NCBI RefSeq assembly: GCF_000179555.1
Contig: NZ_AECZ01000029.1
Span: 1-49,763 of the forward strand
DNA length: 49,763 nucleotides
Direction: 5' to 3'
Source of the DNA: Solidesulfovibrio fructosivorans JJ]
Lineage (GTDB): Bacteria; Desulfobacterota; Desulfovibrionia; Desulfovibrionales; Desulfovibrionaceae
Shown: positions 1 to 49,763 of the stretch, piece by piece
How positions within the stretch are numbered: the first letter of the stretch is position 1
How the letters are laid out: the number at the start of each line of letters is the position of its first letter
Program-made: the position numbers and the translations under genes
The notes under the pieces: model-generated
The model's input: the letters and a program-made list of their open reading frames with translations, nothing else
The model's database searches: none
Told to the model about the DNA's origin: nothing

Positions 1-26
1 TTTGCAAAAGGGTTTCCCCTCTCGCA
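1..26 (+). repeat. right half of dispersed hairpin A
   Basis: The window opens inside one arm of the A hairpin that recurs through the window (compare 17463-17504 and 43393-43435). The bases after it, CATCCCCC, match the outer flank of forward copies. The left arm lies outside the window. A TTG codon within the repeat is in frame with the following gene and would add residues MQKGFPSR, but the ATG at 50 is the better start. Confidence 0.8.
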
Positions 27-49: not shown

Positions 50-802
50 ATGAAACGTAAAATCATCGAAATCGACGAGGCCTTGTGCAACGGCTGCGGC
101 CAGTGCGTGACGGGCTGCGCCGAGGGGGCGCTCGCCATCGTGGACGGCAAGGCGCGGATCGTGGCCGACCACTTCTGCGACGGCCTGGGCGCCTGCATCG
201 GCCACTGCCCGACCGGAGCGTTGCAGATCATCGAACGGGAAGCCCCGGATTTCGATGAAAAGGCCGCGCTTGCCCATGTGGCCGCCATGGAAGGCAAAAA
301 AATGTCCGGCGGTTGCCCTTCGGGGCAGCCCCTGACCCTGACGCCCTGCCAGCAGGCCAACATCCCGACTGGGCGGACGCCGGTCGCCGGCTCGGCCCTG
401 TCCAGCTGGCCGATCAAGCTGCGGCTCGTGCCGCCTACGGCCCCGTTTCTAAAGGGCGCGCGCTTGCTTCTTACCTCGGACTGCGTGCCGCCGGCCTTTC
501 CCGCCTTCCACAGCGCTTTTCTGCCCGGCCGGGTGGCGCTGCTCGGCTGTCCGAAGTTCGATGACGTCCAGGCCTATGTGGACAAGTTGACGGCCATCGT
601 GCGCGAAAACGCCGTTGCGGACATCACCGTGCTCCAGATGGATGTGCCCTGCTGCTCGGGCATGGCCCGCATCGCGGCCATGACCGTGGCCGCCTCGGGC
701 CGGGACATCCCCGTCACCCGGGTGGTGGTCGGCAGGCGGGGCGGGATCGTGTCCATGGGACCGGTTTCCGAAAAGGGATCCGCGCGGGGGATAACCCTTT
801 AA
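50..802 (+). CDS. ferredoxin-domain iron-sulfur protein (250 aa)
   Basis: A small cytoplasmic electron-transfer-type protein. The N-terminus carries a ferredoxin fold: C13-x2-C16-x2-C19-x3-C23 is a complete [4Fe-4S] motif. The second motif, C43-x5-C49-x3-C53-P, has Leu at the position of the usual middle cysteine, so that site is either a [3Fe-4S] cluster or degenerate. Residues about 80-250 form a second domain I do not recognise, with a CCSGMARI segment (two adjacent cysteines) that could bind metal or a cluster. The ATG at 50 follows AAGGACACCTC, a weak ribosome site. The gene lies just downstream of an A repeat and upstream of a cupin gene. The partner is unknown. Confidence is high for the ferredoxin domain and low for the biological role. 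Confidence 0.8.
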   Translation: MKRKIIEIDEALCNGCGQCVTGCAEGALAIVDGKARIVADHFCDGLGACIGHCPTGALQIIEREAPDFDEKAALAHVAAMEGKKMSGGCPSGQPLTLTPCQQANIPTGRTPVAGSALSSWPIKLRLVPPTAPFLKGARLLLTSDCVPPAFPAFHSAFLPGRVALLGCPKFDDVQAYVDKLTAIVRENAVADITVLQMDVPCCSGMARIAAMTVAASGRDIPVTRVVVGRRGGIVSMGPVSEKGSARGITL

Positions 803-850
803 AAAGGCCGGCAGCCCCTCTCGCGCTTTCCCCCTCCTAAACTTTTTACC
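781..850 (-). repeat. degenerate A half-element, reverse orientation
   Basis: The order is hairpin (CGCGCGGGGG...CCCCTCTCGCG), CTTTCCCCCTCCTAAAC and TTTTTACC. This is the reverse complement of the TTTAGGAAGGGGAGAGCGCGAGAGGGG order of intact copies. The stem has mismatches, so this copy looks decayed. It overlaps the last codons of the preceding gene and may have extended that reading frame. Confidence 0.6.
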
Positions 851-3095: not shown

Positions 3096-3130
3096 CCGGG
3101 GGGAAACTTTTTCAAAAAGTTTCCCCCCGG
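3096..3130 (-). repeat. B-type hairpin between DUF1800 and DUF1501
   Basis: A perfect 17-bp stem closed by a single C, CCGGGGGGAAACTTTTT and its complement. It is immediately followed on the minus strand by ACCCCCCTTC and a second imperfect inverted repeat (3069-3094). It lies 28 bases after the stop codon of the DUF1800 gene. It may terminate transcription or cap the 3' end of the mRNA. The flank matches the B half of the composite repeats at 30001, 43270 and 44256. Confidence 0.8.
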
Positions 3131-11326: not shown

Positions 11327-11486
11327 GCGAGAGGGGAAACCCTTTTGCAAAGGGTTCTCCCCTCTCGCGCTCTCCCCTTCCTAAACTCTTCGACCGTTAT
11401 AAGCGGGTTGCCCTTGTTCCCCGGAAAAATTCTTTGGAAAGGGGGTCTGGGGGAAGAACCTTTCTGCAAGAAAGGTTTTCCCCCAG
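11327..11486 (-). repeat. composite B-A repeat, full copy, between livJ and livH
   Basis: Read along the minus strand: B hairpin (CTGGGGGAAAACCTTTC stem, 11447-11486), then ACCCCCTTTCCAAAGAA, a variable centre, TAACGGT...GTTTAGGAAGGGGAGAGC, then A hairpin (11327-11368, stem GCGAGAGGGG-A-GAACCC). The order and flanks are the same as at 30001-30168. It lies entirely between livJ and livH on the transcribed strand, so it may reduce expression downstream of the abundant binding protein. Confidence 0.85.
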
Positions 11487-11503
11487 CCGCTTCGTTCCAA
11501 GTA

Positions 11504-17340: not shown

Positions 17341-17365
17341 CTTTCCACCTCATAACGGAAATGCA

Positions 17366-17407
17366 AAGGGCCTTCCCATCGCCATGGCGGCGGGAAGGCC
17401 TTTTTTT
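17366..17407 (+). terminator. rho-independent terminator of the flavodiiron gene
   Basis: A 9-bp stem GGCCTTCCC (17369-17377) and GGGAAGGCC (17392-17400), whose loop contains CGCCATGGCG, followed by seven T (17401-17407). Starts 26 bases after the stop codon. Confidence 0.9.
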
Positions 17408-17434
17408 GCGCACCGCGACCATGCGCATCTTACC

Positions 17435-17504
17435 CCGTTAAAAACTTTAGGAAGGGGAGAGCGCGAGAGGGGAAACCCTTTCCTGAAAGGGTTTCCCCTC
17501 TCGC
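17435..17504 (+). repeat. A half-element with perfect hairpin
   Basis: CCGTTAAAAACTTTAGGAAG, GGGAGAGC, then the hairpin 17463-17504 with a perfect 19-bp stem (GCGAGAGGGGAAACCCTTT) and CCTG loop. No B half precedes it; the flavodiiron terminator is there instead. It lies between convergent genes, 26 bases from the stop of the DksA-like gene. Confidence 0.85.
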
Positions 17505-17530
17505 ACCCTCTTCGCCTCCCTCCTCTCTCC

Positions 17531-17797: not shown

Positions 17798-17905
17798 GGT
17801 TCGCTCCTTTGTCCAGGCGTCGGCGGTTCCCGAAGCGGGTCGGACAGGCCTGGCCCCGAAAACCGCTCTCCATAACCAATAACAATGAGGCCTCCCGGCG
17901 CGGCG

Positions 17906-30000: not shown

Positions 30001-30168
30001 CCGGGGGGAAACCTTTCTGAAGAAAGGTTTTCCCCCCGGGCCCCCTTTCCAAAGACTTTTATAATAACAGCTGGATGTGAGCGGTGGAGCTCGTATAACG
30101 GTAAAAACTTTAGGAAGGGGAGAGCGCGAGAGGGGAGAACCCTTCCTTGAAAGGGTTTCCTCTCTCGC
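30001..30168 (+). repeat. composite B-A repeat, full copy, between dehydratase and activase
   Basis: B hairpin 30001-30038 (CCGGGGGGAAACCTTTC, TGAA loop, complement with one extra T), CCCCCTTTCCAAAGACTTTTA, variable centre, AACGGTAAAAACTTTAGGAA, GGGGAGAGC, A hairpin 30126-30168. It starts 15 bases after the dehydratase stop and ends 31 bases before the activase ATG, so it is an in-operon insertion in the same relative orientation as at livJ/livH. Confidence 0.88.
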
Positions 30169-30199: not shown

Positions 30200-31162
30200 A
30201 TGAATTGGAAGCAGCGACAGCATTCGTTCAGCCTGGCCGACCGCGACCGTCCCGGTCCCACGGGCCTTGTTTTCGACATCCAGCGTTTCGCCGTGCACGA
30301 CGGCGGCGGCATCCGCACCCTGGTTTTCCTCAAGGGCTGTCCACTGCGCTGCCGGTGGTGCCAGAACCCCGAATCCATGAATCCGGCCCCGGAGATCATG
30401 CGCATCGCCCACACCTGCATTTCCTGCGTGAAGTGCATGGCGCTTTGCCCGCGACAGGCCATCCGTTTCGCCGCAAACGGAACGGTGGTCATCGACCGCG
30501 AGGCCTGCGACCTGTGCGGGGAGTGCGTGGCCACCTGCTACGCCGGTTCCATGACCATCGTCGGCCGCTACCTGACGCCCGGGGAAGTCCTGGACGAGGT
30601 GTGCCGGGACGCGAAGTTCTACACCGTCTCCGGCGGCGGGGTGACCTTTTCCGGCGGCGAGCCGACCTTGCAGCTCGATTTCCTGCGCGCCTGTCTGCGC
30701 GAGGCCAAGGCCCGGGGGCTGCACACCGCCATCGAGACCTGCGGCCACGCGCCCTGGACCTCGTTTGCCGGCCTGCTCGGCGACGTGGATCTCTTTTTGT
30801 GCGACATCAAGCACATGGACGGCGCGCGCCACCGCGAGCTGACCGGGGTGTCCAACGAACGCATTCTGGAGAACATCGAACGCCTGAGCCAGGCCGGGGC
30901 GGCGGTGCGCCTGCGCCTGCCGCTTATCCCCGGGGCCAACGACAGCGAAGCCAACGTCACGGCCACGGCCCGCTTCGCCGCCGGCCTGCCGCATTTGCGG
31001 GGCTTCGACATCCTGCCCTACCACCGCCTGGGGGAATCCAAGTGGCGCCAACTCGACCGGCCCTATCCCATGACCGGCGTCGCGCCGCACACCCGTGCGG
31101 AAGTGCTGGCCCGGGCCGCCCTGGCCGGGGAGTACGTGGCCACGGTCGGCATCGGCGGCTAG
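30200..31162 (+). CDS. glycyl-radical enzyme activating protein, radical SAM (320 aa)
   Basis: Uses S-adenosylmethionine and a [4Fe-4S] cluster to abstract hydrogen from the glycine of its partner. The radical SAM motif is the variant C-x3-C-x2-C in KGCPLRCRWCQNPES. An inserted ferredoxin-like domain has two further cluster motifs, CISCVKCMALCPRQAI and CDLCGECVATCYAGSM, as in activases of glycerol dehydratase and choline lyase. Later: SGGGVTFSGGEPTLQ, the SAM-binding GGE motif. Length typical of this three-cluster group. ATG at 30200; the ribosome site is weak (AAAGG), which together with the upstream hairpins predicts low expression relative to the enzyme, as needed for a catalyst of activation. 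Confidence 0.93.
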   Translation: MNWKQRQHSFSLADRDRPGPTGLVFDIQRFAVHDGGGIRTLVFLKGCPLRCRWCQNPESMNPAPEIMRIAHTCISCVKCMALCPRQAIRFAANGTVVIDREACDLCGECVATCYAGSMTIVGRYLTPGEVLDEVCRDAKFYTVSGGGVTFSGGEPTLQLDFLRACLREAKARGLHTAIETCGHAPWTSFAGLLGDVDLFLCDIKHMDGARHRELTGVSNERILENIERLSQAGAAVRLRLPLIPGANDSEANVTATARFAAGLPHLRGFDILPYHRLGESKWRQLDRPYPMTGVAPHTRAEVLARAALAGEYVATVGIGG

Positions 31163-39956: not shown

Positions 39957-41398
39957 GCCGGACCGTCCATCTTGCCCGCCCCGGCTTCGGACAGGGGCAG
40001 GCGGATGGTGAACACCGCCCCCTTACCCGGGGCGCTGTCCACGGTGATCTTGCCGGCGTGCTTTTCCACGATGCCGTAGACGATGGACAGCCCGAGCCCC
40101 GTGCCCTTGCCCTCCTCCTTGGTGGTGTAGAAGGGATCGAAGACGCGGCTTCGGATTTCCTCCGGGATGCCGGGGCCGGTGTCGGACACGGTGATGACGG
40201 CTTGGCCGGCGTCCGCGTCGCGCCTGGCGGCCAGGCTCACCTCGCCCTTGCCGTCCACGGCCTGGATGCCGTTTATGAGCAGGTTCAAAAGCGCTTCCTG
40301 AAGGCGCGAGGCGTCGGCCGGGATGACGAGGTCGTCCGGCACGTCGCTTGTCAGCCGCACGCCCGAGCCGCCCTGGCTGGACACCAGCCGCAACGTCCGC
40401 CCGGCAAGCTCGGACAGGGGCACCGGGCGCAGGGAGAATTCCCGGGCCCGGGAAAATTCCAGCAGCCCCTGCACGATGTCCCGCGCCCGCAGGGTTTCCT
40501 GGTGGATGTTGGCGAGCAGCTTACGCAAAAAGGCCGGGTCGGCGGTTTCCAGCTCGTCCAGGGCGATCTGGCTGGAGGTCGAGATGTTGTTGAGGGGGTT
40601 GTTGAGCTGATGGGCCACGCCGGCGGTCAGGGTGCCGATGGACGAGAGCTTTTTCGTCTGCACGAGCTGGTCCTGACGGCGCTCGATCTCGGCCACCATG
40701 CGGTTCATCGCCTCCATGACCTGCTCGATCTCGTCGTTGGTGTTGACGACCTGGATTTCCTTGAACCGGCCGGCGGCGATGTCCTGGGTGGCGGCGCGGA
40801 TGATGCCCAGCGGCTTGAAAATCTTGCGGAACATGAGCAACGGCAAGGCCACGCCCAGGGCCACGGACACGGACACGGCCAAAAGGAGCTGGGCCCCGAG
40901 CAGCCGGATCAGCGCCCGGATGCGCCCACGCTCGAATTCCACCACCGCGTCGGCGGCCTCGGTAAGGCCTTTGCCCACCTCGCGCAGCTTAAGCGCCGCC
41001 TCGCCGCCCTGCCCGCCCCCGGAGACGGCCAGATCCCCCAGAGCCTGCCGGTAGTCGCGCAGCCGCGCCCGCAAGGCGTCAAGCTGGGAGGAGACGCGCA
41101 AATCGCTGGCCTCGGCCGTCAGCGCGTCCAGAGTCTTGAAGGATTCGGCCAGGTAGCGCCGATCCTCGGCCAGGTCCTCGGGCAGGCCGTAAAGCAGATA
41201 GTTCTTCTCGTAGCGCCGCACTTCGAGGATGGTGTTGGCAATGACGTGCCCCAGGCGCATGAACTCGAGCTTGTCCTCCATGGTGCGCAGGTCCTCGTAG
41301 GAAATGATGCCCATGGCACCGATCCCGAGCACGTAAAGTGTCAGAATAGCGACTATTTTTTGTCGAAGACTGAGGCGGGCGCGAAGGAGGCTGGTCAT
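39953..41398 (-). CDS. membrane sensor histidine kinase, two transmembrane helices (481 aa)
   Basis: TM1 about 14-33, TM2 about 168-190. The periplasmic segment between is helical, with VRRYEKNYLLYGLPEDLAEDRRYLAE, a pattern typical of helical-bimodular-type sensors. HAMP about 191-245. H box at about 267-275 reads GVAHQLNNPLNNIST (Gln where most kinases have Glu). N box LLNLLINGIQAV, G1 DTGPGIPEE, F PFYTTKEEGKGTG and G2 GLGLSIVYGIVEKH are intact. ATG at 41398 with GGGGGA upstream. Paired with the sigma-54 regulator. The cue is unknown. Confidence 0.92.
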
Positions 41399-41512
41399 GA
41401 GGTCCCCCGGCTGGACGGATTGGCCTGCCGGCCTGGAGACTTAGCCTACACGCCGTGGCCCCGGGGAACAAGGCCCGGCGGGAATCGCCCCGCCGCCCTT
41501 GCCCGCTTTTTT

Positions 41513-41584
41513 TGCTCAAACGAGCAAAAAAACCCCCTTTTCCCCTTGACTCCTCCCAGGCGAGTCTTAATGCTCTTTTGAGCA
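41513..41584 (+). promoter_or_regulatory. promoter flanked by two identical-type operators TGCTC-N4-GAGCA
   Basis: Operator 1 at 41513-41526 (TGCTC AAAC GAGCA), operator 2 at 41571-41584 (TGCTC TTTT GAGCA), both with T/A-rich flanks. Between them TTGACT (41546-41551) suits a -35 box, with a possible -10 (TAATGC, 41568-41573) running into operator 2. Centre-to-centre distance is 58 bp. The protein binding there is likely the UPF0251 product coded 17 bases downstream, a DNA-binding protein, but that is inference. Confidence 0.65.
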
Positions 41585-41600
41585 AAACAAAGGAGTGATC

Positions 41601-41939
41601 ATGCCGCGTCCCCGTCTGCGCCGGTGCGTCTCCGGCATCCCCAAGGCCACGTATTTCAAGCCGCAAGGCGCGCCCCTGCGGGACTTGCGGGAAATCCGCC
41701 TGTCCGTGGAAGGACTCGAGGCCTTGCGCCTGGCCGATGTGGAAGGCCTTACCGCCGAGGCGGCGGCGACGCGCATGGGCGTGTCCCGCCATACCTTCGG
41801 CCGGGTGCTGGCCGAGGCCCGGGGCAATGTGGCCCGGGCGCTGACCACCGGTTCGGCGCTTCGCATCGAGGGCGGCGACTACGCCCTGGCCACAGACGCC
41901 CGCGCCGCCGGGGACGCGGCTCCAAACGACGCTCCATAA
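41601..41939 (+). CDS. UPF0251 (DUF134) HTH protein (112 aa)
   Basis: Starts MPRPRLRRCVSGIPKATYFKPQG, the unmistakable DUF134 N-terminus, followed by LREIRLSVEGLEALRLADVEGLTAEAAATRMGVSRHTFGRVLAEARGNVARAL, a sigma-70-region-4-like helix-turn-helix. Family members occur with DUF5320 and NifX/Mrp-type genes in sulfate reducers and archaea and are taken to be regulators. ATG at 41601 has AAAGGAG six bases away; a GTG at 41595 (MIMPRP) is possible. Likely autoregulated through the two upstream repeats. Confidence 0.92.
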   Translation: MPRPRLRRCVSGIPKATYFKPQGAPLRDLREIRLSVEGLEALRLADVEGLTAEAAATRMGVSRHTFGRVLAEARGNVARALTTGSALRIEGGDYALATDARAAGDAAPNDAP

Positions 41940-41954
41940 AAGGAGGATGACGTT

Positions 41955-42290
41955 ATGCCACGAGGTGATCGTAGTGGTCCCATGGGTCAGGGTTCCGGCA
42001 CGGGCCGGGGAGCCGGGTATTGCAGCGGCGCGGGCGCGCCGGGGTTTTCCAGCGCGCCGGGCCGGGGCGGACGGCGAATGGGCATGGGCATGGGACAGGG
42101 CCGCATGGGCGGTCGCGGCGGCGTGTGGTGTCGCGGCATGGGGCGCGGCTTCGGCCCCGGTGTTGACGCCGGAACCGAGACGGACGCCGAACGCCAGGCG
42201 CTTTTGCAGCAGGCCCAGGCCATGCAGGCCAACCTTGACGCCCTAAACGAACGTCTGGCCAGATTGGAAAAGACGGCCGACCAGGATTAG
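41955..42290 (+). CDS. DUF5320 Gly/Met/Arg-rich protein (111 aa)
   Basis: N-terminus MPRGDRSGPMGQGSGTGRGA matches the DUF5320 pattern (MPRGDxTGPxGxGPxTGR). Residues 20-70 are Gly/Arg/Met-rich with two cysteines (GYCSGAG, VWCRGMG). The C-terminus is a coiled coil (ERQALLQQAQAMQANLDALNERLARLEKTA). Function unknown; always found near UPF0251 and Fe-S/NifX-type proteins. AGGAGG ten bases before the ATG. Operon with the UPF0251 gene, 15-base gap. The NifX and MinD-like genes often following are absent here. Confidence 0.9.
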   Translation: MPRGDRSGPMGQGSGTGRGAGYCSGAGAPGFSSAPGRGGRRMGMGMGQGRMGGRGGVWCRGMGRGFGPGVDAGTETDAERQALLQQAQAMQANLDALNERLARLEKTADQD

Positions 42291-42306
42291 GAGGGGGGAA
42301 GCGGAT

Positions 42307-42490
42307 GCGGGAGTGGGAAACCCTTTGAAAAAAGCGGTAGCCCCTCCCGCGCCCTCCCCTTCCTAAACTTTCTCACGATGACGGCATGCGATAGGGAGCA
42401 CGTCGTTATCGTCAAGCCCTCTTCCGGAACGTCAAGGAAGGGGAAAACACGCGAGGGGGACAGCCCGGTGGCGGGTTGCCCCTTTCGCGT
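42307..42490. repeat. two decayed A half-elements in opposite orientation
   Basis: 42307-42372 is a reverse copy (hairpin GCGGGAGTGGGAAACCC...GGTAGCCCCTCCCGC, then CCTCCCCTTCCTAAACTTTC). 42431-42490 is a forward copy (GTCAAGGAAGGGGAAAACAC, then GCGAGGGGGACAGCC...GGTTGCCCCTTTCGCG). The stems keep about two-thirds of their pairs. The pair faces inward and fills the gap between the DUF5320 and DUF364 genes. Confidence 0.6.
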
Positions 42491-42522
42491 ATCCGTTGCA
42501 ACGCGACCGAAGGAGTAAGGAC

Positions 42523-43251
42523 ATGGCGGAAGAGATGCTTGGAACCGTGCGCGAACAGGCGCTCGCCCTGTGGAAGGAGCACGATCTGCTGGGCGAGCCC
42601 ATTACGGTCACGGCCCGCACGCTCACGGTGCACGAGGCCATCGGCGACCCCGATGGCGACGATTTCCCGCTGCAAAAAGGCAAGGAACAGCTCATGGAGG
42701 CCGTCTTTCGCGGCGAAAAAGGCCAGGCCTTCACGGACCGCTTCGGCGATTTCTCCGGCTCCCTGGCCGACGTGGCCGCCATGGAGCTTACCGGCAACTT
42801 CCGCCGGGCCGTGTTCGTCTCCGCGCTCAACGCCACCTGCCGCAGCCTGGGGCTTTGCACCGGCACCGTCCACTGCCGCGACAAGGAACCCAACGACTGC
42901 GCCACCGCCTTTCGCGACCACATCGCCGACACCTACGGCAATCCGCGCATCGCCCAGGTCGGCTTCCAGCCCAAGATGATTGAAATCCTGAGCAGCCGCT
43001 TCACGGTCAAGGTCCTGGACCGCGACCCGGACAACATCGGGTCCGTCAAGCACGGCGCGTCCGTCCACGGCCCCGAAGAACAGGCGTCGATCCTGGACTG
43101 GGCCGACCTCATCGTGTCCACGGGCTCGACGCTGGCCAACGACAGCATCGGCGATTTCCTCACCGACAAGCCGGTCATCTTCTACGGCACCACCGTGGCC
43201 GGCGCGGCGGCGCTCATGGGCTGGCAACGCTTTTGCGCCAAATCGCGCTGA
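42523..43251 (+). CDS. DUF364-family Rossmann-like protein (242 aa)
   Basis: The C-terminal half has NPRIAQVGFQPKMIEILSSRFTVKVLDRDPDNIG and WADLIVSTGSTLANDSIGDFLTDKPVIFYGTTVAGAAALMGWQRF, matching the DUF364 domain that is annotated as a putative heavy-metal chelation domain; the N-terminus (about 1-90) fits the associated DUF4213 part. CRSLGLCTGTVHCRDKEPNDC offers three or four cysteines. Roles proposed for the family involve metal or cofactor handling. Strong GAAGGAGTAAGGAC before ATG 42523. Cytoplasmic. Activity unknown. Confidence 0.82.
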   Translation: MAEEMLGTVREQALALWKEHDLLGEPITVTARTLTVHEAIGDPDGDDFPLQKGKEQLMEAVFRGEKGQAFTDRFGDFSGSLADVAAMELTGNFRRAVFVSALNATCRSLGLCTGTVHCRDKEPNDCATAFRDHIADTYGNPRIAQVGFQPKMIEILSSRFTVKVLDRDPDNIGSVKHGASVHGPEEQASILDWADLIVSTGSTLANDSIGDFLTDKPVIFYGTTVAGAAALMGWQRFCAKSR

Positions 43252-43269
43252 GTGTCTGGGGGAGAGGAG

Positions 43270-43435
43270 CCGGGGGGAACCTTTTCTGAAGAAAAGGTTC
43301 CCCCCGGACCCCCTTCCCAAAGACTCTTAGTGGTTACAGCGTGTTGCCTGTAACACAGCAGTAACCATTAAGAAGTTTAGGAAGGGGAGAGCGCGAGAGG
43401 GGAGAACCCTTTGCAAAAGGGTTTCCCCTCTCGCA
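43270..43435 (+). repeat. composite B-A repeat, full copy, between convergent genes
   Basis: B hairpin 43270-43307: perfect 17-bp stem CCGGGGGGAACCTTTTC with TGAA loop. Then ACCCCCTTCCCAAAGACTCTTAG, an inner hairpin-prone centre (TGGTTAC...GTAACCA, 43331-43368), AGAAGTTTAGGAAGGGGAGAGC and A hairpin 43393-43435. The arm CCTTCCCAAAGACT pairs with AGAAGTTTAGGAAGG, so the whole can fold as one long structure. Confidence 0.9.
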
Positions 43436-43461
43436 CCCTCTTATCCCTCTCCTCTCCCCTC

Positions 43462-44184
43462 CTAAAATAACCAGATATGGTCGAGACCGGCGCCGTCGTG
43501 GCCTTCGGTGCGCCGTTCCCGCAGGATGGTTGCCGGCCGCCCGGCGGCCACCATGTTGTCCGGCACGTCGTGGGTGACCAGCGCCCCGGCGGCGACGATG
43601 GCCTGCCGGCCGACGGTCACGCCGGGCAGCAGCACCGCCCCGGAATAGACCTTGGCGTAGTCGCCGATGACCACCGGCTTGTAGGTCCGCTTGATGTGCG
43701 AAGCCTCGCCGTGGCTATGGGTGAAAACGCGCACGTCCTCGGCCACGGCCACGTCGTTGCCGATGCGCACCCCACCTTTGGTGTCCAGAAAGACGTTGCG
43801 GTTGAAAAACACGTTGTCTCCGACGGTCAGCAGTTGGGGGAAATTGAACCGCATGTTTTCCTCGGCCGTAAAGACCGCGCCGCAAGCCCCGAAAAGCCGT
43901 CTGGCCAACAGCCGCCGAAACGGGATGGAAAACGAAACCACCAGACACAGCGGCAGCTTGTCGAAGGTGTCCCACAGAAAATGCAGATGGCGCAGGGCCG
44001 GCGTCAGCGGGTACTCCTCGGCCTTGGGCAGGGTTTCGGCATAGAGCCGGATGTGGGCGATGGCCTCCAGCTCCATGGGCGGCGCATCCATGATGGCCAG
44101 AATTTCCTGGACGGCTTCAGGCATTTCGATGTGGCCGAGGGCATCCTCAATATGGGATAGGCACGCATTGAAATAATTGGCCAT
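43462..44184 (-). CDS. hexapeptide-repeat acyltransferase (240 aa)
   Basis: C-terminal half is a left-handed beta-helix of the maltose/galactoside acetyltransferase type: FPQLLTVGDNVFFNRNVFLDTKGGVRIGNDVAVAEDVRVFTHSHGEASHIKRTYKPVVIGDYAKVYSGAVLLPGVTVGRQAIVAAGALVTHDVPDNMVAAGRPA. The His of THSH is the expected catalytic base and AGRPA closes the last coil. The N-terminal 100 residues are helical and not recognised. Probably transfers acetyl from acetyl-CoA to a sugar or similar acceptor. Isolated between two composite repeats. Confidence 0.9.
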   Translation of the reverse strand: MANYFNACLSHIEDALGHIEMPEAVQEILAIMDAPPMELEAIAHIRLYAETLPKAEEYPLTPALRHLHFLWDTFDKLPLCLVVSFSIPFRRLLARRLFGACGAVFTAEENMRFNFPQLLTVGDNVFFNRNVFLDTKGGVRIGNDVAVAEDVRVFTHSHGEASHIKRTYKPVVIGDYAKVYSGAVLLPGVTVGRQAIVAAGALVTHDVPDNMVAAGRPATILRERRTEGHDGAGLDHIWLF

Positions 44185-44255
44185 CGGGGACCTTCCGGTT
44201 TTCCGACAGCGTAGCAGACGGAGCCACCGCCAACAATGCGTTTGAGGAAGAAGAG

Positions 44256-44402
44256 CCGGGGGGAACCTTTTCTGAAGAAAAGGTTCCCCCCAGGCCCCCT
44301 TCCCAAAGACTTTTAGCGGTTACTACCTGTCACCGTTAAACGTTTTTGGGAGGGGAGAGCGCGAGAGAGGGACCCTTTTTTCAAAAAGGGTCCCTCTCTC
44401 GC
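44256..44402 (+). repeat. composite B-A repeat, full copy
   Basis: B hairpin 44256-44293 (CCGGGGGGAACCTTTTC, TGAA), CCCCCTTCCCAAAGACTTTTAGCGG, short centre, ACCGTTAAACGTTTTTGGGA, GGGGAGAGC, A hairpin 44361-44402 with a perfect 20-bp stem (GCGAGAGAGGGACCCTTTTT). The A stem sequence differs from other copies on both arms together (GAGAGAGGGACCC), a compensatory pattern. Lies between the acyltransferase start and the DsrE-like stop. Confidence 0.9.
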
Positions 44403-44426
44403 ATCGCCTTCTCTCGTCCCCCTCCC

Positions 44427-44783
44427 TCACACGCTCAGGATCTTCCAGCTGTCTTTGAGGTATCCGGTCATGGGCTCGCCCATGTAGAGAACGTCCAGGC
44501 CGAGGCGTTTGAGGTCTTCGGTCACGCCGTAGCGCTCGGCGCAGGCCAGGCAGGCCAGAAGCGTCACCCCGGCCTTGCGGCAGGCGGCCACTTCGGCCTG
44601 GAGCTCGGCGTCCGTGGCGAGAAGTTTCGCCGAAGGCCCCCAGACGACCAGATGCACCTCGTCCCACCAGCCCTTGAGGCGGGAGTTCTTGGCGTACATG
44701 AGCGCCATGTTCAGGGCCGCTTCCTTGTCGGCGGTGACCCAGAGCATGACCAGCCCCGGGGCCGCGTTCTCTTGCGTCGTCAT
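44427..44783 (-). CDS. DsrE-like small protein (118 aa)
   Basis: DsrE/DsrF-like fold: LVMLWVTADKEAALNMALMYAKNSRLKGWWDEVHLVVWGPSAKLLATDAELQAEVAACRKAGVTLLACLACAERYGV. The cysteines of the AACRKAG and ACLACAE segments are candidates for sulfur relay, though the family also has inactive members. Last gene of the flavin-redox cluster, 54 bases after the iron-sulfur flavoprotein gene. Confidence 0.85.
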   Translation of the reverse strand: MTTQENAAPGLVMLWVTADKEAALNMALMYAKNSRLKGWWDEVHLVVWGPSAKLLATDAELQAEVAACRKAGVTLLACLACAERYGVTEDLKRLGLDVLYMGEPMTGYLKDSWKILSV

Positions 44784-44837
44784 GAATACGTTTCTCCTGT
44801 GAAGAGGGGCGCGGAAACAGGGTGAGGAACCGCGAAG

Positions 44838-45413
44838 CTAGCCATGAAGCCTTTGCAGCACCCAGGCCATGTTCTTGCCCAGGTTTTTCATGGTCAGCAT
44901 GCCCTCCTCGTCTGTTTCCACATCGCCGGGCTCAAGCCCCCGCCCCATGTTCCAGTAGCTCGACCCCGGCACCACCATCTGGTTGATGAAGTAGAAGTGG
45001 TTGATGGAGTTGAAGACATGGATGGCTCCGGCGCGCCGCACGGCCACCGCCGCCGCGCCGACCTTGCGCGCCAGCATGGAATCGTTGGCCAGGGCCACCA
45101 TGCCGGCCCGGTCGATGATGGACTTGATGTTGCTCGAGACGTTGGCGAAGTAGGTGGGCGAACCCAGAATCATGCCGTCGGCCGCGACCATCTTGTCGAT
45201 GATCTCGTTTAACATGTCGTTTTTGACGGCGCAGTGGCCGTCCTTTTTCTCCCAGCACTTCATGCAGGCGATGCAGCCGTGGATATTCTTGCCGTGGAGT
45301 TGCAGCAGTTCGGTCTCGATGCCCGCGGCTTCGATTTCGCCAAGCGCCGTGCGCAGCATGATGGCGGTGTTGCCGTCCTTTCTCGCACTGCCGTTTATGG
45401 CCAGCACCTTCAT
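44838..45413 (-). CDS. iron-sulfur flavoprotein (NADPH-dependent FMN reductase family), 191 aa
   Basis: Flavodoxin-like fold beginning MKVLAINGSARKDGNTAIML (FMN phosphate site SARKDGNT). C47-x2-C50-x2-C53-x7-C61 (GCIACMKCWEKKDGHC) is the compact [4Fe-4S] motif of archaeal and clostridial iron-sulfur flavoproteins (Isf). SPTYFANVSSNIKSIIDRAG is the second flavin-binding loop. Isf proteins shuttle electrons from ferredoxin, or reduce O2, peroxide or quinones. AAAGGAG precedes ATG 45413; four-base ATGA overlap with the upstream flavoredoxin gene. Confidence 0.92.
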   Translation of the reverse strand: MKVLAINGSARKDGNTAIMLRTALGEIEAAGIETELLQLHGKNIHGCIACMKCWEKKDGHCAVKNDMLNEIIDKMVAADGMILGSPTYFANVSSNIKSIIDRAGMVALANDSMLARKVGAAAVAVRRAGAIHVFNSINHFYFINQMVVPGSSYWNMGRGLEPGDVETDEEGMLTMKNLGKNMAWVLQRLHG

Positions 45414-45982
45414 TGCCTTTCTCCTTTCTTGAGCGCCTTGCCCGCGCTCCAGGCGTCGGCGACATGGTCCCCGAGCGTCCAATAGCGGTTGTCGGGCATG
45501 GTGAGCAGAAGCGGCTTGTACTTCGCCACATCCGGCTTGCCGTCGGTGAGGATTTCGCCGTCGGCCCAACCGGCCTTGATTTCGCCGATGAAAAACGTGT
45601 GCTGCGGCAGGTCCACGGCCTGGAAAAGGGTCATCTCCAGGCACAGCGGGCACTGGCGGATCATGGGCGCGCCCGCGACCTCGCCGGAAAACACGTCGAA
45701 GAGCGCGGCCTTGTCCGCCTTGCGCCCGGACACGAGCCCGCAGTAATCGGTTTTCTCCACAAGCCCCGGCCCGGGCAGGCACAGGGAAAACGCGCCGTTT
45801 TCCCGGATGCCCTGGGCCGTGTACTGGCGATGGTTGATGGAGACGCCGATCATCGGCGGTTTGTGTCCCACCCGCGTCACCCAGGCGGCGGCCATGAAGT
45901 TGGGCCGTCCCTCGACCATCGCCCCGACCAGGGTCACGGGCATGGGCGGCAGGATCTCCGGGTCCAGGCGCACTTTCTCCAT
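45410..45982 (-). CDS. flavoredoxin-like FMN-binding protein 1 (190 aa)
   Basis: Split-barrel flavin reductase-like family. Contains PMPVTLVGAMVEGRPNFMAAAWVTRVGHKPPMIGVSINHRQYTAQGIRENGAFSLCLPG, KTDYCGLVSGRKADKAALFDVFSG, PQHTFFIGEIKAGWAD. The length equals flavoredoxin of Desulfovibrio gigas, an FMN dimer linked to thiosulfate/sulfite reduction. One base after the stop of paralogue 2, four-base overlap with the iron-sulfur flavoprotein gene. Electron partner unknown. Confidence 0.9.
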   Translation of the reverse strand: MEKVRLDPEILPPMPVTLVGAMVEGRPNFMAAAWVTRVGHKPPMIGVSINHRQYTAQGIRENGAFSLCLPGPGLVEKTDYCGLVSGRKADKAALFDVFSGEVAGAPMIRQCPLCLEMTLFQAVDLPQHTFFIGEIKAGWADGEILTDGKPDVAKYKPLLLTMPDNRYWTLGDHVADAWSAGKALKKGERQ

Positions 45983-45983
45983 A

Positions 45984-46553
45984 CTATTTCAGCTCCTTGC
46001 CGATGGAAAAAGCCAGGCCAAGATCGCGGCCCAGGCCGTAGTAATGCCGGTCCTCCGGGGCGAAGATGATGGGCTTTATGGCCGCCGCATCCGGCTTGCC
46101 GTCCTTCATGCACGCGCCGTCCACTTTCACGTCCAGCACCTCGCCCACGAACATGGTGTGCTGGCCCAGGTCCTGGACATGGATCAGCTTGCATTCCACC
46201 GTAAGCGGACACTCGGCAACATAGGGCGCATCCACGAGCTCGCTTTTCACGGCCGTGTAGCCGCACACCGCGAACTTGTCGGCATTTTTGCCGGAGACGA
46301 TGCCGCAGTAGTCCACCTTGGCCACATCCGCCTCGGCGGCGACGTTTATCGTGAACGCCTTGCGCTCCATGATGGCGGCATAGGAATAGCGGGGCTTTTG
46401 CAGCGAAACGGTCATGCACACCGGCTTGGAGCAGCATATGCCGCCCCAGGCCGCGGTCATGAGGTTGGGCTTGCCGTCCGCGTCGTAGGTGCCGATCAGC
46501 CAGGCCGGTGTCGGCAGGGTCATGCTTTTCGCGCCAAGGGAGACCTTTTCCAT
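45984..46553 (-). CDS. flavoredoxin-like FMN-binding protein 2 (189 aa)
   Basis: Same fold: TPAWLIGTYDADGKPNLMTAAWGGICCSKPVCMTVSLQKPRYSYAAIMERKAFTINVA, KVDYCGIVSGKNADKF, GQHTMFVGEVLDVKVD. ATG at 46553 is chosen because GAAGGAG is seven bases upstream; an ATG at 46559, which overlaps the stop of paralogue 3 as ATGA, lies only one base from that site. GICCSKP has a vicinal Cys pair not seen in paralogues 1 and 3. Sits in the middle of the operon. Confidence 0.9.
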   Translation of the reverse strand: MEKVSLGAKSMTLPTPAWLIGTYDADGKPNLMTAAWGGICCSKPVCMTVSLQKPRYSYAAIMERKAFTINVAAEADVAKVDYCGIVSGKNADKFAVCGYTAVKSELVDAPYVAECPLTVECKLIHVQDLGQHTMFVGEVLDVKVDGACMKDGKPDAAAIKPIIFAPEDRHYYGLGRDLGLAFSIGKELK

Positions 46554-46555
46554 TA

Positions 46556-47143
46556 TCATACTCCTTCGTGTTCAGTCCGTTGCGCCGGGTAGTCCCGGCC
46601 AGCCCGCCAGCAGGGGGCGACCGGTTCGCCGACGGAAAAATACCAGCCACTGGAATAGTCGAACAGAAGCGGCCTGGCTTTTTCCAGGTCCACCTTGCCC
46701 TCTTTGAGGCAGGATTCCTCGGCGTAGGAACCGGCCAGCTCGCCCACGAACACCTCGTGGGCCGGCAGGTCGATCACCTGATGCAGCTTCAGTTCCATAT
46801 TGACCGGGCATTCCCGGATCATGGGCGCATTGCCGAGTTCCCCGTAAAAGACGTCGAAGACGCGCGACTTGTCCACCTTCGCCCCGGAGACGATGCCCAC
46901 ATAGTCCGTGGCCACGGCCATGGACTTTCCCGGCAGGCAGATGGAAAACGCGCCGGATTCGCGGATGCCCCGGCTGGTGTGCCGGAACTTCTTCAGGCTC
47001 ACGGTCAGGTACTGGGGGGCCGCGTTGTTCAGGATGCCCACATGGGCGATGGCCAGGAAATTGGGCCTACCGTCCACCATTGCCCCGACAATGGTCGCGG
47101 GCATGGGATACAGCAGGCACGTCCGGCCAAGATGACGTTGCAT
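46556..47143 (-). CDS. flavoredoxin-like FMN-binding protein 3 (195 aa)
   Basis: MPATIVGAMVDGRPNFLAIAHVGILNNAAPQYLTVSLKKFRHTSRGIRESGAFSICLPG, ATDYVGIVSGAKVDKSRVFDVFYGELGNAPMIRECPVNMELKLHQVIDLPAHEVFVGELAGSY. Starts at ATG 47143 (MQRHLGRTCLLYPM), 13 bases after the nitroreductase stop, with GAAGGCGAAG upstream. More similar by eye to paralogue 1 (both share MPxTxVGAMV-GRPNF and GxxIRExGAFSxCLPG) than to paralogue 2. Confidence 0.9.
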   Translation of the reverse strand: MQRHLGRTCLLYPMPATIVGAMVDGRPNFLAIAHVGILNNAAPQYLTVSLKKFRHTSRGIRESGAFSICLPGKSMAVATDYVGIVSGAKVDKSRVFDVFYGELGNAPMIRECPVNMELKLHQVIDLPAHEVFVGELAGSYAEESCLKEGKVDLEKARPLLFDYSSGWYFSVGEPVAPCWRAGRDYPAQRTEHEGV

Positions 47144-47156
47144 GGCGCTTCGCCTT

Positions 47157-47666
47157 CTACCAACGGTTTCTGTGGATGCGCTCGGGCTTGAACCGGTCCA
47201 CGCGCTTGAAATCGGGGCTTGGATGGCCAAGCACCACCAAGGCGTGGGCCGAGACCCCTTCGGGCAGGCCGAGCAGCGTGGCCATGCCTTCCATGCGATC
47301 GGCCTGGGGATACAGCCCGCACCAGACCGAGCCGATGCCGAGCCCCCGGGCGGCCAGCATCAGGTTCTCCACGGCGGCGGAACAATCGAGCACCCAATTG
47401 CCCGGATACTTCTCCAGGGCGTGCTCGGCCGCGACCACGATGGCCAAAGGGGCGGTCTTGACCATGGCCGCGTAGGGATGGACCGACGGGATGGCGTCGA
47501 GCACCTCCCGGTCGGTGATGGCCACGAAATGCCAGGGTTGCTCGTTGCCGGCGCTCGGCGCGGCCATGGCCGCGCGCAGGATGGCGTCCATATCCGTTTC
47601 GGACACCGGCGCGTCGGTGAAGGCGCGGATGCTGCGCCGGGTATGGATGGCTTCGAACAGATCCAT
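47157..47666 (-). CDS. nitroreductase-family protein (169 aa)
   Basis: An FMN-dependent oxidoreductase: MDLFEAIHTRRSIRAFTDAPVSETDMDAILRAAMAAPSAGNEQPWHFVAITD (FMN-binding RRSIR and PSAGNxQPWHF), GIGSVWCGLYP and HPSPDFKR near the end. Members reduce quinones, nitro compounds or flavins with NAD(P)H. The short length is typical of the small clade common in anaerobes. AGGAGG precedes ATG 47666. First gene of a six-gene leftward operon, divergent from the HxlR regulator. Confidence 0.92.
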   Translation of the reverse strand: MDLFEAIHTRRSIRAFTDAPVSETDMDAILRAAMAAPSAGNEQPWHFVAITDREVLDAIPSVHPYAAMVKTAPLAIVVAAEHALEKYPGNWVLDCSAAVENLMLAARGLGIGSVWCGLYPQADRMEGMATLLGLPEGVSAHALVVLGHPSPDFKRVDRFKPERIHRNRW

Positions 47667-47754
47667 GGGACCTCCTTTTCGGTTTCCGCTTTACGGCTAA
47701 AGACATTTCTGCCAGTATGGCGAAAAAAACAAGTAGGCACAAATAAGTTGTGTA

Positions 47755-47770
47755 GTATCCTTTTGGATAC
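47755..47770. promoter_or_regulatory. HxlR-type operator GTATCC-N4-GGATAC
   Basis: Perfect inverted repeat GTATCC TTTT GGATAC, flanked by TA/CA (TAGTATCC...GGATACCA). Lies 20 bases before the HxlR ATG and 88 bases before the nitroreductase ATG, in a divergent promoter region. On the minus strand TTGTGC and CATACT (17-base spacer) would suit a promoter for the redox operon just next to it. Binding by the HxlR product is an inference from position. Confidence 0.6.
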
Positions 47771-47789
47771 CATAAAAGGAGCGGGCATC

Positions 47790-48191
47790 ATGGCCGGACA
47801 GGGAACATCGTGCGGGCGCAAGCGCTGCCGAGGCAAGGAATACTCATGCAGCATGGAACTTTCGCTGGCGGTCATCGGCGGCAAATGGAAACCGCTGATC
47901 CTGTGGCATCTGCGCGACGTCACGACCCTGCGCTTCTCGGCCCTGCGCCGCGCCATGCCGAGCATCACCCAGAAGATGCTCACCCAGCAGTTGCGAGAAC
48001 TCGAGGCCGACGGGCTCATCACCCGCACCGTCTACGCCGAAGTGCCGCCGCGCGTGGAGTACGGCCTGACCGAGCCGGGCCGCGACATCATCCCCATCCT
48101 CGAGGCCCTGTGCCGGTTCGGCAAGGAATTCGAAGCCCGGTTCGGGCTCGAGGACGCCGGCGCCGTGCCGGACCACGCCGCGAGGCGGTAG
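47790..48191 (+). CDS. HxlR-family transcriptional regulator (133 aa)
   Basis: Winged helix: SMELSLAVIGGKWKPLILWHLRDVTTLRFSALRRAMPSITQKMLTQQLRELEADGLITRTVYAEVPPRVEYGLTEPGRDIIPILEAL, the complete HxlR domain. C-x4-C-x6-C (GTSCGRKRCRGKEYSC) at residues 8-20 supplies three cysteines ahead of the domain; HxlR regulators often sense quinones or electrophiles through such a cysteine. AAAGGAGCGG precedes the ATG at 47790. Divergent from the flavin-redox operon, which it probably controls. Confidence 0.93.
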   Translation: MAGQGTSCGRKRCRGKEYSCSMELSLAVIGGKWKPLILWHLRDVTTLRFSALRRAMPSITQKMLTQQLRELEADGLITRTVYAEVPPRVEYGLTEPGRDIIPILEALCRFGKEFEARFGLEDAGAVPDHAARR

Positions 48192-48225
48192 CGGAGTGAG
48201 TGGGGAGGAGGAGGCGGGAGGAGAA

Positions 48226-48271
48226 CCGGGGGAGGGAACCCTTTTTTTCAAAAAAGGGTTCCCTCCCCCGG
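48226..48271 (+). repeat. B-type hairpin, terminator-like
   Basis: CCGGGGGAGGGAACCCTTTT pairs with its complement over more than 20 bp, loop of two or three bases, 35 bases after the HxlR stop, followed by ACCCCCACCCTCCCCAAAAACTTTC and then T7. The downstream part matches the arm that follows B in composite copies (compare CCCCCTTCCCAAAGACTTTT), but no A half follows. Confidence 0.8.
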
Positions 48272-48631
48272 ACCCCCACCCTCCCCAAAAACTTTCATAG
48301 TTTTTTTAATCGCAAGATATTACTTGTTTTTCAAGACGATCTAGGCGTCCATTCTTCCTTCCGCCCGTCTCGAGCCGCCTGGGAGCGCTCGTTGTTCATG
48401 GATAAAAAAGAGGCGCTGACCCGAGTGCTGTATCTTTTGCATCCATATTACATTCCTTTTCAGTATAGTTTTTAAACGTGAGAAGACCCTGGTGATGGAC
48501 GTTTCTTTTCCCCTTGCCGTGATTGCCCAAGGCAACAGAATTGTCATGTTCGCGCAAGGCCAAGAATATCAGTATGTTAAAGACGTGACAATTCAGGCCC
48601 GAATGGATTTCAGACCAAATTAGTTCCACAA
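48272..48631. other. 360-bp intergenic region, AT-richer, no confident gene
   Basis: Possible short frames (for example 48399-48475, 24 codons) have no ribosome site. Bases 48300-48480 and 48530-48620 are clearly AT-richer than coding DNA here. It carries the upstream control region for the sigma-54 promoter at 48632. Activator sites were not recognised. Confidence 0.5.
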
Positions 48632-48647
48632 TGGCACGGGGGCTGCA
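48632..48647 (+). promoter_or_regulatory. sigma-54 promoter of the ZraP-like gene
   Basis: TGGCAC-N5-CTGCA: GG and GC exactly 10 bases apart. It matches the consensus TGGCAC-N5-TTGCA at all but one position. Predicted start near 48659, 23 bases before the ATG at 48682 with GGAGG seven to eight bases upstream of it. Confidence 0.8.
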
Positions 48648-48681
48648 CACAGGGAAACAAATTTCATTGGAGGCATTTCCC

Positions 48682-49407
48682 ATGCGCAAAAGTATTCGTA
48701 TCCCCGCCGCGCTGGCCCTGACCCTGGCCCTGACCGTTCCGGCCCTGGCCCAGACCATCCACCAGCACAACACCCCGGCGGCCACGACCGCCAAAACCGA
48801 CACGACCAAGACCGACGCCACGGCCGCCAAGACCGTGGACCCCAACAAGGTCTACCTGCTCCGCCAGGACTACATAGCCAAGACCGCCGAACTGCGCGGC
48901 AAGCTCGTCGCCCGTCAGGCCGAGCTGGAAACCCTGCTCGCCACCAAGCCCGACGACACCACCGCCGTCACCAAGCTCACCACCGAAATAAGCGCCCTGC
49001 GCGGCAAGCTGTTCGAACAGGACACCCTCTTCCGCATCCGCTACGCCAAGGAAACCGGCACCCCCATCCGCATGACCCGCCACATGGGCCGGATGGAAGG
49101 CATGATGATGGACGGCATGATGGGCGGTAAGATGATGATGGGCCCCAAGAGCGATGCCGACTGCAAGATGATGGGTAAGGACAAGGGAATGATGATGATG
49201 GGCAAGGGCATGATGATGGGTATGCAGCATGACATGCAGGCCATGAACCACGGCGCGACCGGGGCCATGCCCGCTATGAACGGCACTATGCCCGGCCATA
49301 CCATGCCCATGCCCGCCGCCAACGCCCAGAACACTCCGGCCGCGGCCGCGCCTGCCGCTCCCAGCGCTCCCGCCGCCCCGACCAACACAGCCCCGACCAA
49401 CCAATAA
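48682..49407 (+). CDS. periplasmic Met-rich ZraP/CpxP-like metal-binding protein (241 aa)
   Basis: Signal peptide MRKSIRIPAALALTLALTVP ending ALAQ. A helical segment (about 55-125) YLLRQDYIAKTAELRGKLVARQAELETLLAT...TKLTTEISALRGKLFEQDTLFRIRYAKE matches the LTXXQ-like chaperone core of ZraP/CpxP. Then a methionine/histidine/glycine-rich region (about 130-215: MMMDGMMGGKMMMGPK, MMGKDKGMMMMGKGMMMG, MQHDMQAMNHG) suited to Cu(I), Zn or Ag ions, and an Ala/Pro/Thr-rich tail. In Escherichia coli zraP is driven by the sigma-54 activator ZraR, and here too a sigma-54 promoter precedes the gene. Metal identity not known. Confidence 0.85.
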   Translation: MRKSIRIPAALALTLALTVPALAQTIHQHNTPAATTAKTDTTKTDATAAKTVDPNKVYLLRQDYIAKTAELRGKLVARQAELETLLATKPDDTTAVTKLTTEISALRGKLFEQDTLFRIRYAKETGTPIRMTRHMGRMEGMMMDGMMGGKMMMGPKSDADCKMMGKDKGMMMMGKGMMMGMQHDMQAMNHGATGAMPAMNGTMPGHTMPMPAANAQNTPAAAAPAAPSAPAAPTNTAPTNQ

Positions 49408-49452
49408 CCACGCCCCGCGACGCTAACCACGCAGACTCACGGAGAAGTCCCA

Positions 49453-49722
49453 ATGCGCACCGCCATAGCCGCCTTCGCCCTCATCGCCGCCCTGGCCGCC
49501 GTCCCCGCCGCCTACGCCGCATCCCAGCCGACCCAAGACACCACCGCCGCCGCCGAAAAGATGTTCACCACCATGGACACCAACAAGGACGGCGTCCTGA
49601 CCAAGGAAGAATTCGCCGCCCACCACATGGCCGACGACTTCGCCAAAGCCGACAAGAACGGCGACGGCAAGGTCACCCGCGAGGAATACCTCGGCCACGC
49701 CTCCGGCATGCAGATGCAGTAA
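49453..49722 (+). CDS. exported EF-hand protein (89 aa)
   Basis: Signal peptide MRTAIAAFALIAALAAVPAAYA then two EF-hand loops: DTNKDGVLTKEEF (about 42-54) and DKNGDGKVTREEY (about 66-78), each with Asp at 1, 3 (Asn/Lys variation), 5 and Glu at 12, so both should bind calcium. Periplasmic calcium buffer or sensor. GGAGAAGTCC precedes ATG 49453. Likely co-transcribed with the ZraP-like gene (45-base gap). Confidence 0.88.
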   Translation: MRTAIAAFALIAALAAVPAAYAASQPTQDTTAAAEKMFTTMDTNKDGVLTKEEFAAHHMADDFAKADKNGDGKVTREEYLGHASGMQMQ

Positions 49723-49739
49723 GAAAGGGCAAAGAAGAT

Positions 49740-49763
49740 GCGAGAGGGGAAACCCTTTAAAAA
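49740..49763 (-). repeat. start of an A hairpin, reverse orientation
   Basis: GCGAGAGGGGAAACCCTTT preceded by GAT, the outer flank of reverse A copies. The right arm is beyond the window. Confidence 0.75.

What the first reader, a model, noticed from the sequence alone, without database searches (positions are those of the whole stretch)
43270..43435. A dispersed composite inverted-repeat element with two hairpins and complementary inner arms
Four full copies (11327-11486, 30001-30168, 43270-43435, 44256-44402) share the order hairpin B, CCCCCTTnCCAAAGAnTTTT arm, variable centre, complementary arm AAAActTTAGGAAGGGGAGAGC, hairpin A. At least eight partial copies lie at 1-26, 781-850, 3096-3130, 17435-17504, 42307-42372, 42431-42490, 48226-48271 and 49740-49763. 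In the copies compared, stem sequences differ between copies but mostly stay paired (for example GAGAGAGGGACCC at 44361), which suggests selection for structure rather than simple copying. The spacing is constant and the centre is not conserved, which argues for a mobile or RNA-level element rather than ordinary terminators. Whether it is already catalogued in Desulfovibrio genomes I cannot tell.
Basis: seen in the sequence. Interest (0 to 1): 0.75.

Follow-up and report, generated by a model that had tools for sequence, protein, structure and literature searches.

The report
Dispersed three-hairpin repeats at gene ends
The finding is real: it is a repeated DNA element of roughly 150-170 bases that folds into three hairpins, usually sits just after stop codons (often filling the gap between two genes that point at each other), and probably shapes the ends of messenger RNAs much as known REP/BIME repeats do in other bacteria, although it lacks their sequence tag and a matching transposase.

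Summary
Confirmed and extended. The element is hairpin B, an inner stem with a fast-changing centre, and hairpin A. Its A-side core occurs 229 times in this genome, 259 times in one congener and 63 times in Desulfovibrio gigas, but at most once in each of the other 12 congeners. Placement is the main result: in 841 kb, 22 of 44 full copies lie between convergent genes, with the outer hairpins a median 19 nt from the stop codons. Only 2 of 44 full copies, and 0 of 56 hits in D. gigas, are in divergent regions. About a third of gene ends followed by at least 90 nt of non-coding DNA carry one; few of these also carry a U-tract terminator. Stems mostly keep pairing while changing, and copies recombine. 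No GTAG/CGTC tag, target-site duplication or associated Y1 transposase was found. Most likely it is a two-way mRNA 3'-end module (attenuator, terminator or stabiliser), like REP/BIME/REPIN repeats but not a member by the tested criteria. Termination is inferred, not shown.

The parts
43270..43307 (+). hairpin B of the reported copy (17-bp stem, 4-nt loop)
43308..43329 (+). 5' inner arm (C/T-rich, then AAAGACTCTTA)
43330..43368 (+). fast-diverging centre, itself an imperfect palindrome in this copy
43369..43392 (+). 3' inner arm, pairs with the 5' inner arm
43393..43434 (+). hairpin A (19 bp with one unpaired base)
43252..43269 (+). purine-rich flank between the stop codon at 43249-43251 and hairpin B
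43435..43461 (+). pyrimidine-rich flank up to the stop of the convergent gene 43462-44184(-); purine-rich on the - strand
44256..44402 (+). full copy, short class; hairpin B 44256-44293, hairpin A 44361-44402; A faces the stop of gene 44427-44783(-)
30001..30168 (+). full copy between a glycyl radical enzyme gene (27559-29985) and a radical-SAM gene (30200-31162)
11327..11486 (-). full copy between a periplasmic binding protein gene (11504-12649, -) and a permease gene (10442-11317, -)
17435..17504 (+). A-half, about 22 nt from the stop of gene 17531-17797(-)
42306..42490 (.). two degenerate A-halves facing each other (A-A composite; the right half by eye and a weak hit)
3096..3130 (-). B-half, 29 nt after the stop of gene 3159-4649(-)
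48226..48272 (+). B-half, about 35-39 nt after the stop at 48191
782..850 (-). degenerate A-half overlapping the end of gene 50-802
1..26 (+). hairpin A cut by the contig start
49740..49763 (-). hairpin A cut by the contig end, about 18 nt after the stop at 49722

Best explanation
A dispersed repeat family that works at the RNA level as a two-way mRNA 3'-end module. Shown: two related units (hairpin, C/T-rich arm, A-rich stretch, CTTTTA) stand head to head around a decaying centre; in full copies the outer hairpins mostly start 5-35 nt after a stop codon; stems mostly stay paired while changing; copies recombine with each other. Inferred: a transcript from either side meets a 17-20 bp hairpin just beyond the terminating ribosome, then the inner stem and the second hairpin with its pyrimidine-rich tail. 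This ends or weakens transcription and blocks 3' exonucleases. Between convergent genes it would separate the two transcripts; inside operons (copies at 11327 and 30001) it would let the upstream gene be expressed more strongly than the downstream one. How it was copied to hundreds of sites is unknown; recombination between copies is the only activity seen.
For: Position: 44 full copies in 841 kb: 22 convergent, 20 codirectional, 2 divergent. In convergent regions the outer hairpins lie a median 19 nt from the stop; 37 of 44 distances are 5-35 nt. In codirectional regions with room, copies hug the upstream stop more than random placement (P 0.012 and 0.0017, n 5 and 8). Another genus (D. gigas): 34 convergent, 22 codirectional, 0 divergent of 56 hits; element in 25 of 35 convergent, 19 of 80 codirectional and 0 of 47 divergent regions of at least 100 nt. 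It is found at 96 of 301 gene ends in G000+G004 and 63 of 153 in D. gigas. Ends with an element carry a U-tract terminator in 3 of 49 cases in G000 and 5 of 51 in G004; other ends in 25 of 100 and 25 of 98 (P 0.007 and 0.03). Structure. Orthologous stems, 17 locus pairs: 462 base pairs same, 14 changed on both sides, 13 on one side, 21 broken, 13 gapped. Centres of 13 orthologue pairs are 57% identical overall, hairpins and arms 87-92%.
Against: No transcript-end data exist here. The proximal hairpin is not followed at once by a U-tract; TTT ends about 20 nt after it. A stem extended by the purine-rich flank is possible but little better than with shuffled flanks, so only composition supports it. 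The lack of classical terminators beside elements is partly trivial, because the element fills the space. Seven of the 19 codirectional full copies have the next start within 60 nt, which speaks against complete termination there. At the conserved glycosyltransferase locus hairpin A lies next to a start codon, not a stop. Among codirectional half hits, 10 of 24 B-halves and 6 of 13 A-halves point away from the upstream stop; 6 of those 10 B hits score under 25 bits, but one of the A hits has 80 bits. 21 broken stem pairs against 14 doubly changed ones (some are alignment slips) is weaker than perfect covariation. G000 and G004 copies are largely orthologous, so they are not independent.
Confidence: 0.6

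Rival explanations
1. A selfish non-autonomous mobile element (REPIN- or MITE-like) moved by an unidentified transposase. Its place near stop codons reflects target preference plus removal of harmful insertions, not a function.
For: Lineage-specific expansion: 229 and 259 A cores in two genomes, 0-1 in the other 12 congeners. Copies share a homologous centre that seems to drift freely. REPINs have a like layout and compensatory changes (PMC3116915, passages).
Against: No target-site duplication in 43 copies. No REP tag. Y1 transposase: 1 in G000, 0 in G004 and G028 (but 2 in G018, 4 in G005, 1 in G008); no element hit at E up to 1 in 7 of the 8 Y1 loci fetched. B and A halves enclosing genes in 841 kb: two cases, one an IS1595-type insertion into an arm, the other a 4.1-kb stretch with four genes not tested for transposase domains. 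Only the Y1 family was searched for.
Confidence: 0.22
2. Ordinary intrinsic terminators that converged on similar sequences in place.
For: Same positions as terminators; genomes of the family use many long hairpins at gene ends. A simple scan flags the - strand of hairpin B at 44293-44256 and two B-halves as terminator-like (16 sites against 10.1 in shuffles in 41000-49763, 22 against 24.2 in 1-20000).
Against: A 20-nt core repeated more than 200 times against 0-2 for the reversed control; fixed B-centre-A order in the full copies; homologous centres; no immediate U-tract.
Confidence: 0.06
3. DNA-level role (gyrase or nucleoid binding, cruciform, DNA-uptake signal) with stems kept for DNA structure.
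For: Near-perfect long palindromes could extrude; uptake signals sit in terminators of some bacteria (PMC1852404, passages); REPs bind gyrase (recalled). Both orientations occur about equally.
Against: Nearly absent from divergent regions, where a DNA role would be equally possible; anchored to stop codons. None of these roles was tested here.
Confidence: 0.08
4. The paired changes arise by template-switch correction of quasi-palindromes or gene conversion, not by selection on structure.
For: A subtype swap at an orthologous site and a 6-kb inversion between copies show active recombination.
Against: 24 of 39 copies keep the same G-U pair near an unpaired column in hairpin A, which correction would remove; the centre, in the same molecule, decays. 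Common descent of those 24 copies could also explain it.
Confidence: 0.2

Closest known systems
REP / REPIN (GTAG- and CGTC-tagged palindromes, RAYT-linked)
   Same: High-copy, inverted hairpin dimers with variable spacer and compensatory changes (PMC3116915, passages). In P. entomophila and S. wittichi most conv-REPs lie less than 20 bp from the 3' end of both ORFs (PMC3733652, section 15 read).
   Different: No GTAG/CGTC tag, no RAYT association found, hairpins of 38-42 nt (REPs: 20-40 bp, abstract), two different hairpins A and B, complementary inner arms.
BIMEs of enterobacteria (for example the REP between malE and malF, recalled)
   Same: Mosaic of inverted hairpins at 3' ends and inside operons after a binding-protein gene.
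   Different: Sequence not compared by a call; no REP tag. Seen here in Desulfovibrionaceae genomes; a scan of genome contigs also gave one contig of a MAG labelled Pseudodesulfovibrio and one of a MAG labelled Klebsiella (label not checked).
Tandem, U-, V- or X-shaped hairpin terminators
   Same: Several hairpins downstream of stops, coded on both strands (definition in PMC8355165, passages).
   Different: Here they are one repeated element of common descent with more than 200 A cores.
DNA-uptake-signal terminators of Neisseria and Pasteurellaceae
   Same: Repeated sequence forming many of a genome's terminators (PMC1852404, passages).
   Different: Signals are about 9-11 nt, generally with at least 1,000 copies; the element here is much longer and no uptake role was tested.

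Membership tests
REP/REPIN | GTAG or CGTC tag at one end of the palindrome | tested here: not met
   Either tag, on either strand, in 16-18 nt at the four hairpin edges: 1, 2, 1 and 0 occurrences among 43 copies.
REP/REPIN | RAYT (Y1) transposase in the genome, near the repeats | tested here: not met
   PF01797: matches in 4 of 8 genomes (G000 1, G018 2, G008 1, G005 4), none in G004, G011, G028, G026; no element in 7 of the 8 Y1 loci.
REP/REPIN | mostly extragenic inverted dimer with spacer, high copy number | tested here: met
MITE | target-site duplication | tested here: not met
   No clear excess of direct repeats of 3-9 nt at the borders of 43 copies (k=3: 10 against 7.3, maximum 11 in 50 shuffles; k=4: 2 against 1.9; k=5-9: 0).
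MITE | terminal inverted repeats shared with an autonomous element | tested here: inconclusive
   No clear autonomous element in 841 kb; the rest of the genome was not examined for it.
Intrinsic (Rho-independent) terminator | hairpin followed directly by a U-tract | tested here: not met
   Proximal hairpin is followed by C-rich sequence; TTT ends about 20 nt later (56 of 69 units parsed); the distal side is pyrimidine-rich (28% purine, n 19).
Intrinsic (Rho-independent) terminator | stops transcription in vitro or in vivo | not testable with these tools
   No expression data available.
Known RNA family (Rfam 15) | match above the gathering score | tested here: not met
   Only a tRNA in the window.
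DNA-uptake signal | promotes DNA uptake | not tested
   No test made.

The most novel reading that the evidence does not exclude
A gene-end part that behaves as a replicating element: from a copy that stands alone at one glycosyltransferase locus in at least 7 of 12 congeners, a two-way 3'-end module multiplied to 230-260 A cores in one branch, now sits at about a third of gene ends and about half of convergent gene pairs, and did so without the REP tag or the transposase that known families of this kind use.
Probability: 0.35. Interest if true: 0.7.

Novelty: new variant of a known kind. Interest (0 to 1): 0.5.

Why it matters
If right, a bacterium has let a single repeat family take over a large share of its transcript ends. 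That makes testable whether such repeats spread because they are selfish or because they work, and offers ready two-way 3'-end parts for sulfate reducers. The sharp contrast between congeners (0-1 against more than 200 copies of the A core) gives a natural comparison. The repeats also coincide with contig ends (both ends of the window), and their stems can read as protein sequence, which matters for assembly and annotation.

Tried and rejected
Rfam search: nothing but tRNA-Lys. Plasmid collection, distant blastn: no match. Y1 transposase link: not found. Target-site duplications and REP tags: no clear sign. Purine flank as a specific 5' partner of the arm: at least 5 pairs form in 28 of 32 A and 17 of 24 B units, but shuffled flanks pair nearly as well (7.2 against 7.8 and 5.0 against 5.8 pairs on average), so only composition supports it; 13 of 69 units could not be parsed and were dropped. 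Purine flank as a feature of stop codons: rejected, because in codirectional regions the distal flank is pyrimidine-rich on the sense strand too. Conservation of element positions between D. gigas and G000/G004: only 4 reciprocal best pairs qualified, 1 with an element in both and 3 in neither; too few to judge. A 140-kb stretch of congener G001 gave no hit to the element profile. Papers: in the listings shown by ten searches (several listings were cut to 8-15 titles) I saw no paper on palindromic 3' repeats in Desulfovibrionaceae; the library is open-licence only. The D. gigas genome paper (passages) has no occurrence of 'palindrom', 'hairpin' or 'terminator' in its main text.

Full report
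Observation. The element is real. The window is a complete contig (C29) of a 4.67-Mb genome in 75 contigs. The reported copy (43270-43435) folds into hairpin B, an inner stem closed over the centre, and hairpin A, at -112.6 kcal/mol against -53.6 +/- 4.6 for shuffles; the other three full copies behave alike. In the own genome 40 full-length matches were scored (itself and 39 others at 80-85% identity), of 433 first-look candidates, because only 40 are scored. I aligned 46 full copies found in the window and 38 other own-genome loci; 39 of these went into alignment A1 and model R1. The examples read from the last five genomes are mostly half matches or related hairpin pairs of other sequence.

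Distribution. The A-side core (20 nt, at most 1 mismatch) occurs 229 times in G000, 259 times in G004, 63 times in G028, once in 9 of the other 12 congeners and not at all in 3; 24 of 247 sampled family genomes have any match, and the reversed control gives 0, 2 and 2 in the three rich genomes. The B-side motif occurs 74, 83 and 69 times there, and 35 and 43 times in two genomes of another genus that have no A core, so A and B can spread apart. A DNA search of 59 relatives found matches in 26, none of them among the 24 genomes from outside the family. One pattern scan of named genome contigs found six stretches: two each in MAGs called Desulfovibrio sp. W18 and Desulfovibrionaceae UBA6814, one in a Pseudodesulfovibrio MAG and one in a MAG labelled Klebsiella pneumoniae, whose label I did not check. 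G028 is Desulfovibrio gigas by its chromosome length of 3,693,899 bp.

Old copy. In 7 of 10 loci printed, an A-half stands at the same place, before a glycosyltransferase gene (G009, G006, G000, G001, G011, G008, G005); G012, G013 and G004 could not be read in that print-out, though in G012 the core lies 49 nt from that gene by coordinates. So the single core of 6 of the 9 one-core congeners is this copy (G001, G006, G008, G009, G011, G012); G003, G007 and G010 were not checked. This copy is therefore old in the genus. That the others came from it is a guess.

Context. Genes were called with a hexamer model of my own. In 841 kb of G000 and G004, 100 hits comprised 44 full copies, 31 B-halves, 20 A-halves and 5 others. 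Full copies: 22 convergent, 20 codirectional, 2 divergent, where intergenic DNA is 18,995, 61,056 and 24,614 bp. In G000 alone (22 copies above 60 bits) the convergent excess has P 0.0006 and the divergent lack P 0.03. In 21 of 22 convergent cases the region is at most 63 nt longer than the element: stop codon, short flank, element, short flank, stop codon. Of convergent regions of at least 100 nt, 13 of 27 in G000 and 18 of 28 in G004 carry a hit. D. gigas, another genus, repeats this: 0 of 56 hits divergent, and 25 of 35 convergent regions carry one. Half hits are less tidy: 10 of 24 codirectional B-halves and 6 of 13 A-halves point away from the upstream stop. The 18 nt after the stop are 74% purine at element ends (n 40) and 51% at others (n 109) in G000; the strand asymmetry continues on the far side of codirectional copies (72% and 28% purine, n 19), so purine/pyrimidine flanks go with the element.

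Inside operons. Two window copies lie between genes that look co-expressed: binding protein and permease (11327-11486), glycyl radical enzyme and a radical-SAM protein (30001-30168). The next start is about 5 and 27 nt away; in all, 7 of 19 codirectional full copies have the next start within 60 nt. Complete termination would be odd there; partial attenuation or 3' protection fits better, as known for the malE-malF REP (recalled). Another such copy follows a DegT-type aminotransferase gene, and the gene after its G004 counterpart is a chorismate synthase.

Evolution. Of 29 G000 hits of at least 40 bits, 21 could be lifted to the G004 stretches, and 19 of these have an element hit there. Between 13 orthologue pairs, centres are 57% identical and hairpins and arms 87-92%; this includes pairs of different subtype, and one pair without a parsed centre. 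Stem pairs in 17 locus pairs: 462 same, 14 changed on both sides and paired, 13 changed on one side, 21 broken, 13 gapped; some of the broken ones reflect alignment slips. Within A1, double changes exceed shuffles (67 cells against 22.8; 9 pairs against 6.3), while the number of pair types does not (20 against 20.5). Copies exchange: a 6-kb segment is inverted between two inverted copies (C2 111641/117617 against G004), and at C2 188184 the two genomes hold different subtypes between conserved flanks. An IS1595-type insertion interrupts one G004 copy, with what reads as an 8-nt duplication (by eye; transposase domain). Two full G000 copies have no element in G004: at C2 127640 G004 keeps a purine-rich remnant, so loss is likelier than gain, and at C2 195615 G004 holds other sequence. 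In the other direction an A-half at G4a 24933 has no element in G000, and a full copy at G4a 287150 has only a 24-bit remnant.

Mechanism. The two halves share a plan: hairpin, C/T-rich arm, A-rich stretch, CTTTTA. Because they face each other, the arms are complementary. A transcript from either side would meet a long hairpin just past the stop, then the inner stem, then the second hairpin with a pyrimidine-rich tail. Shown: anatomy, place, pairing, exchange. Inferred: attenuation or termination and 3' protection. Not shown: any transcript end, any protein, any transposition.

Known kinds. The placement matches REPs closely (conv-REPs mostly under 20 bp from both ORFs, PMC3733652, section 15 read), and the layout matches REPINs (PMC3116915, passages). 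Membership fails on the tag and the transposase. As a terminator it lacks the immediate U-tract. I therefore file it as a new variant that works like a REP/BIME-type 3'-end repeat.

Noticed in passing
L053, L055 and L056, start of the glycosyltransferase gene: Hairpin A and its arm read as an open frame (ESF.EGRAREGNPF.QKGFPSR) into the glycosyltransferase in G011, G008 and G005, reminiscent of palindromic elements inside coding sequence.
   Followed up: partly
L166-L174 (G011), convergent regions: G011 has another gene-end repeat: GATGCCTCCGGCGGCCGGG... hairpins facing each other at convergent stops, built on a like plan with different stems.
   Followed up: no
L175-L198 (G028 / D. gigas), convergent regions: Some single hairpins seem to join the left arm of A to the right arm of B, and isolated N letters stand at hairpin joints; within-element deletions or unresolved assembly (by eye).
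   Followed up: no
L142:8755-9756 (-): IS1595-type transposase gene inserted in an arm of one element copy in G004.
   Followed up: yes
element centres, for example window:43330-43368: Centres share a decaying palindrome of the form GGTTACAG...GTAACC whose origin is unexplained.
   Followed up: partly
window:33214-33289 (-): tRNA-Lys (CTT).
   Followed up: no
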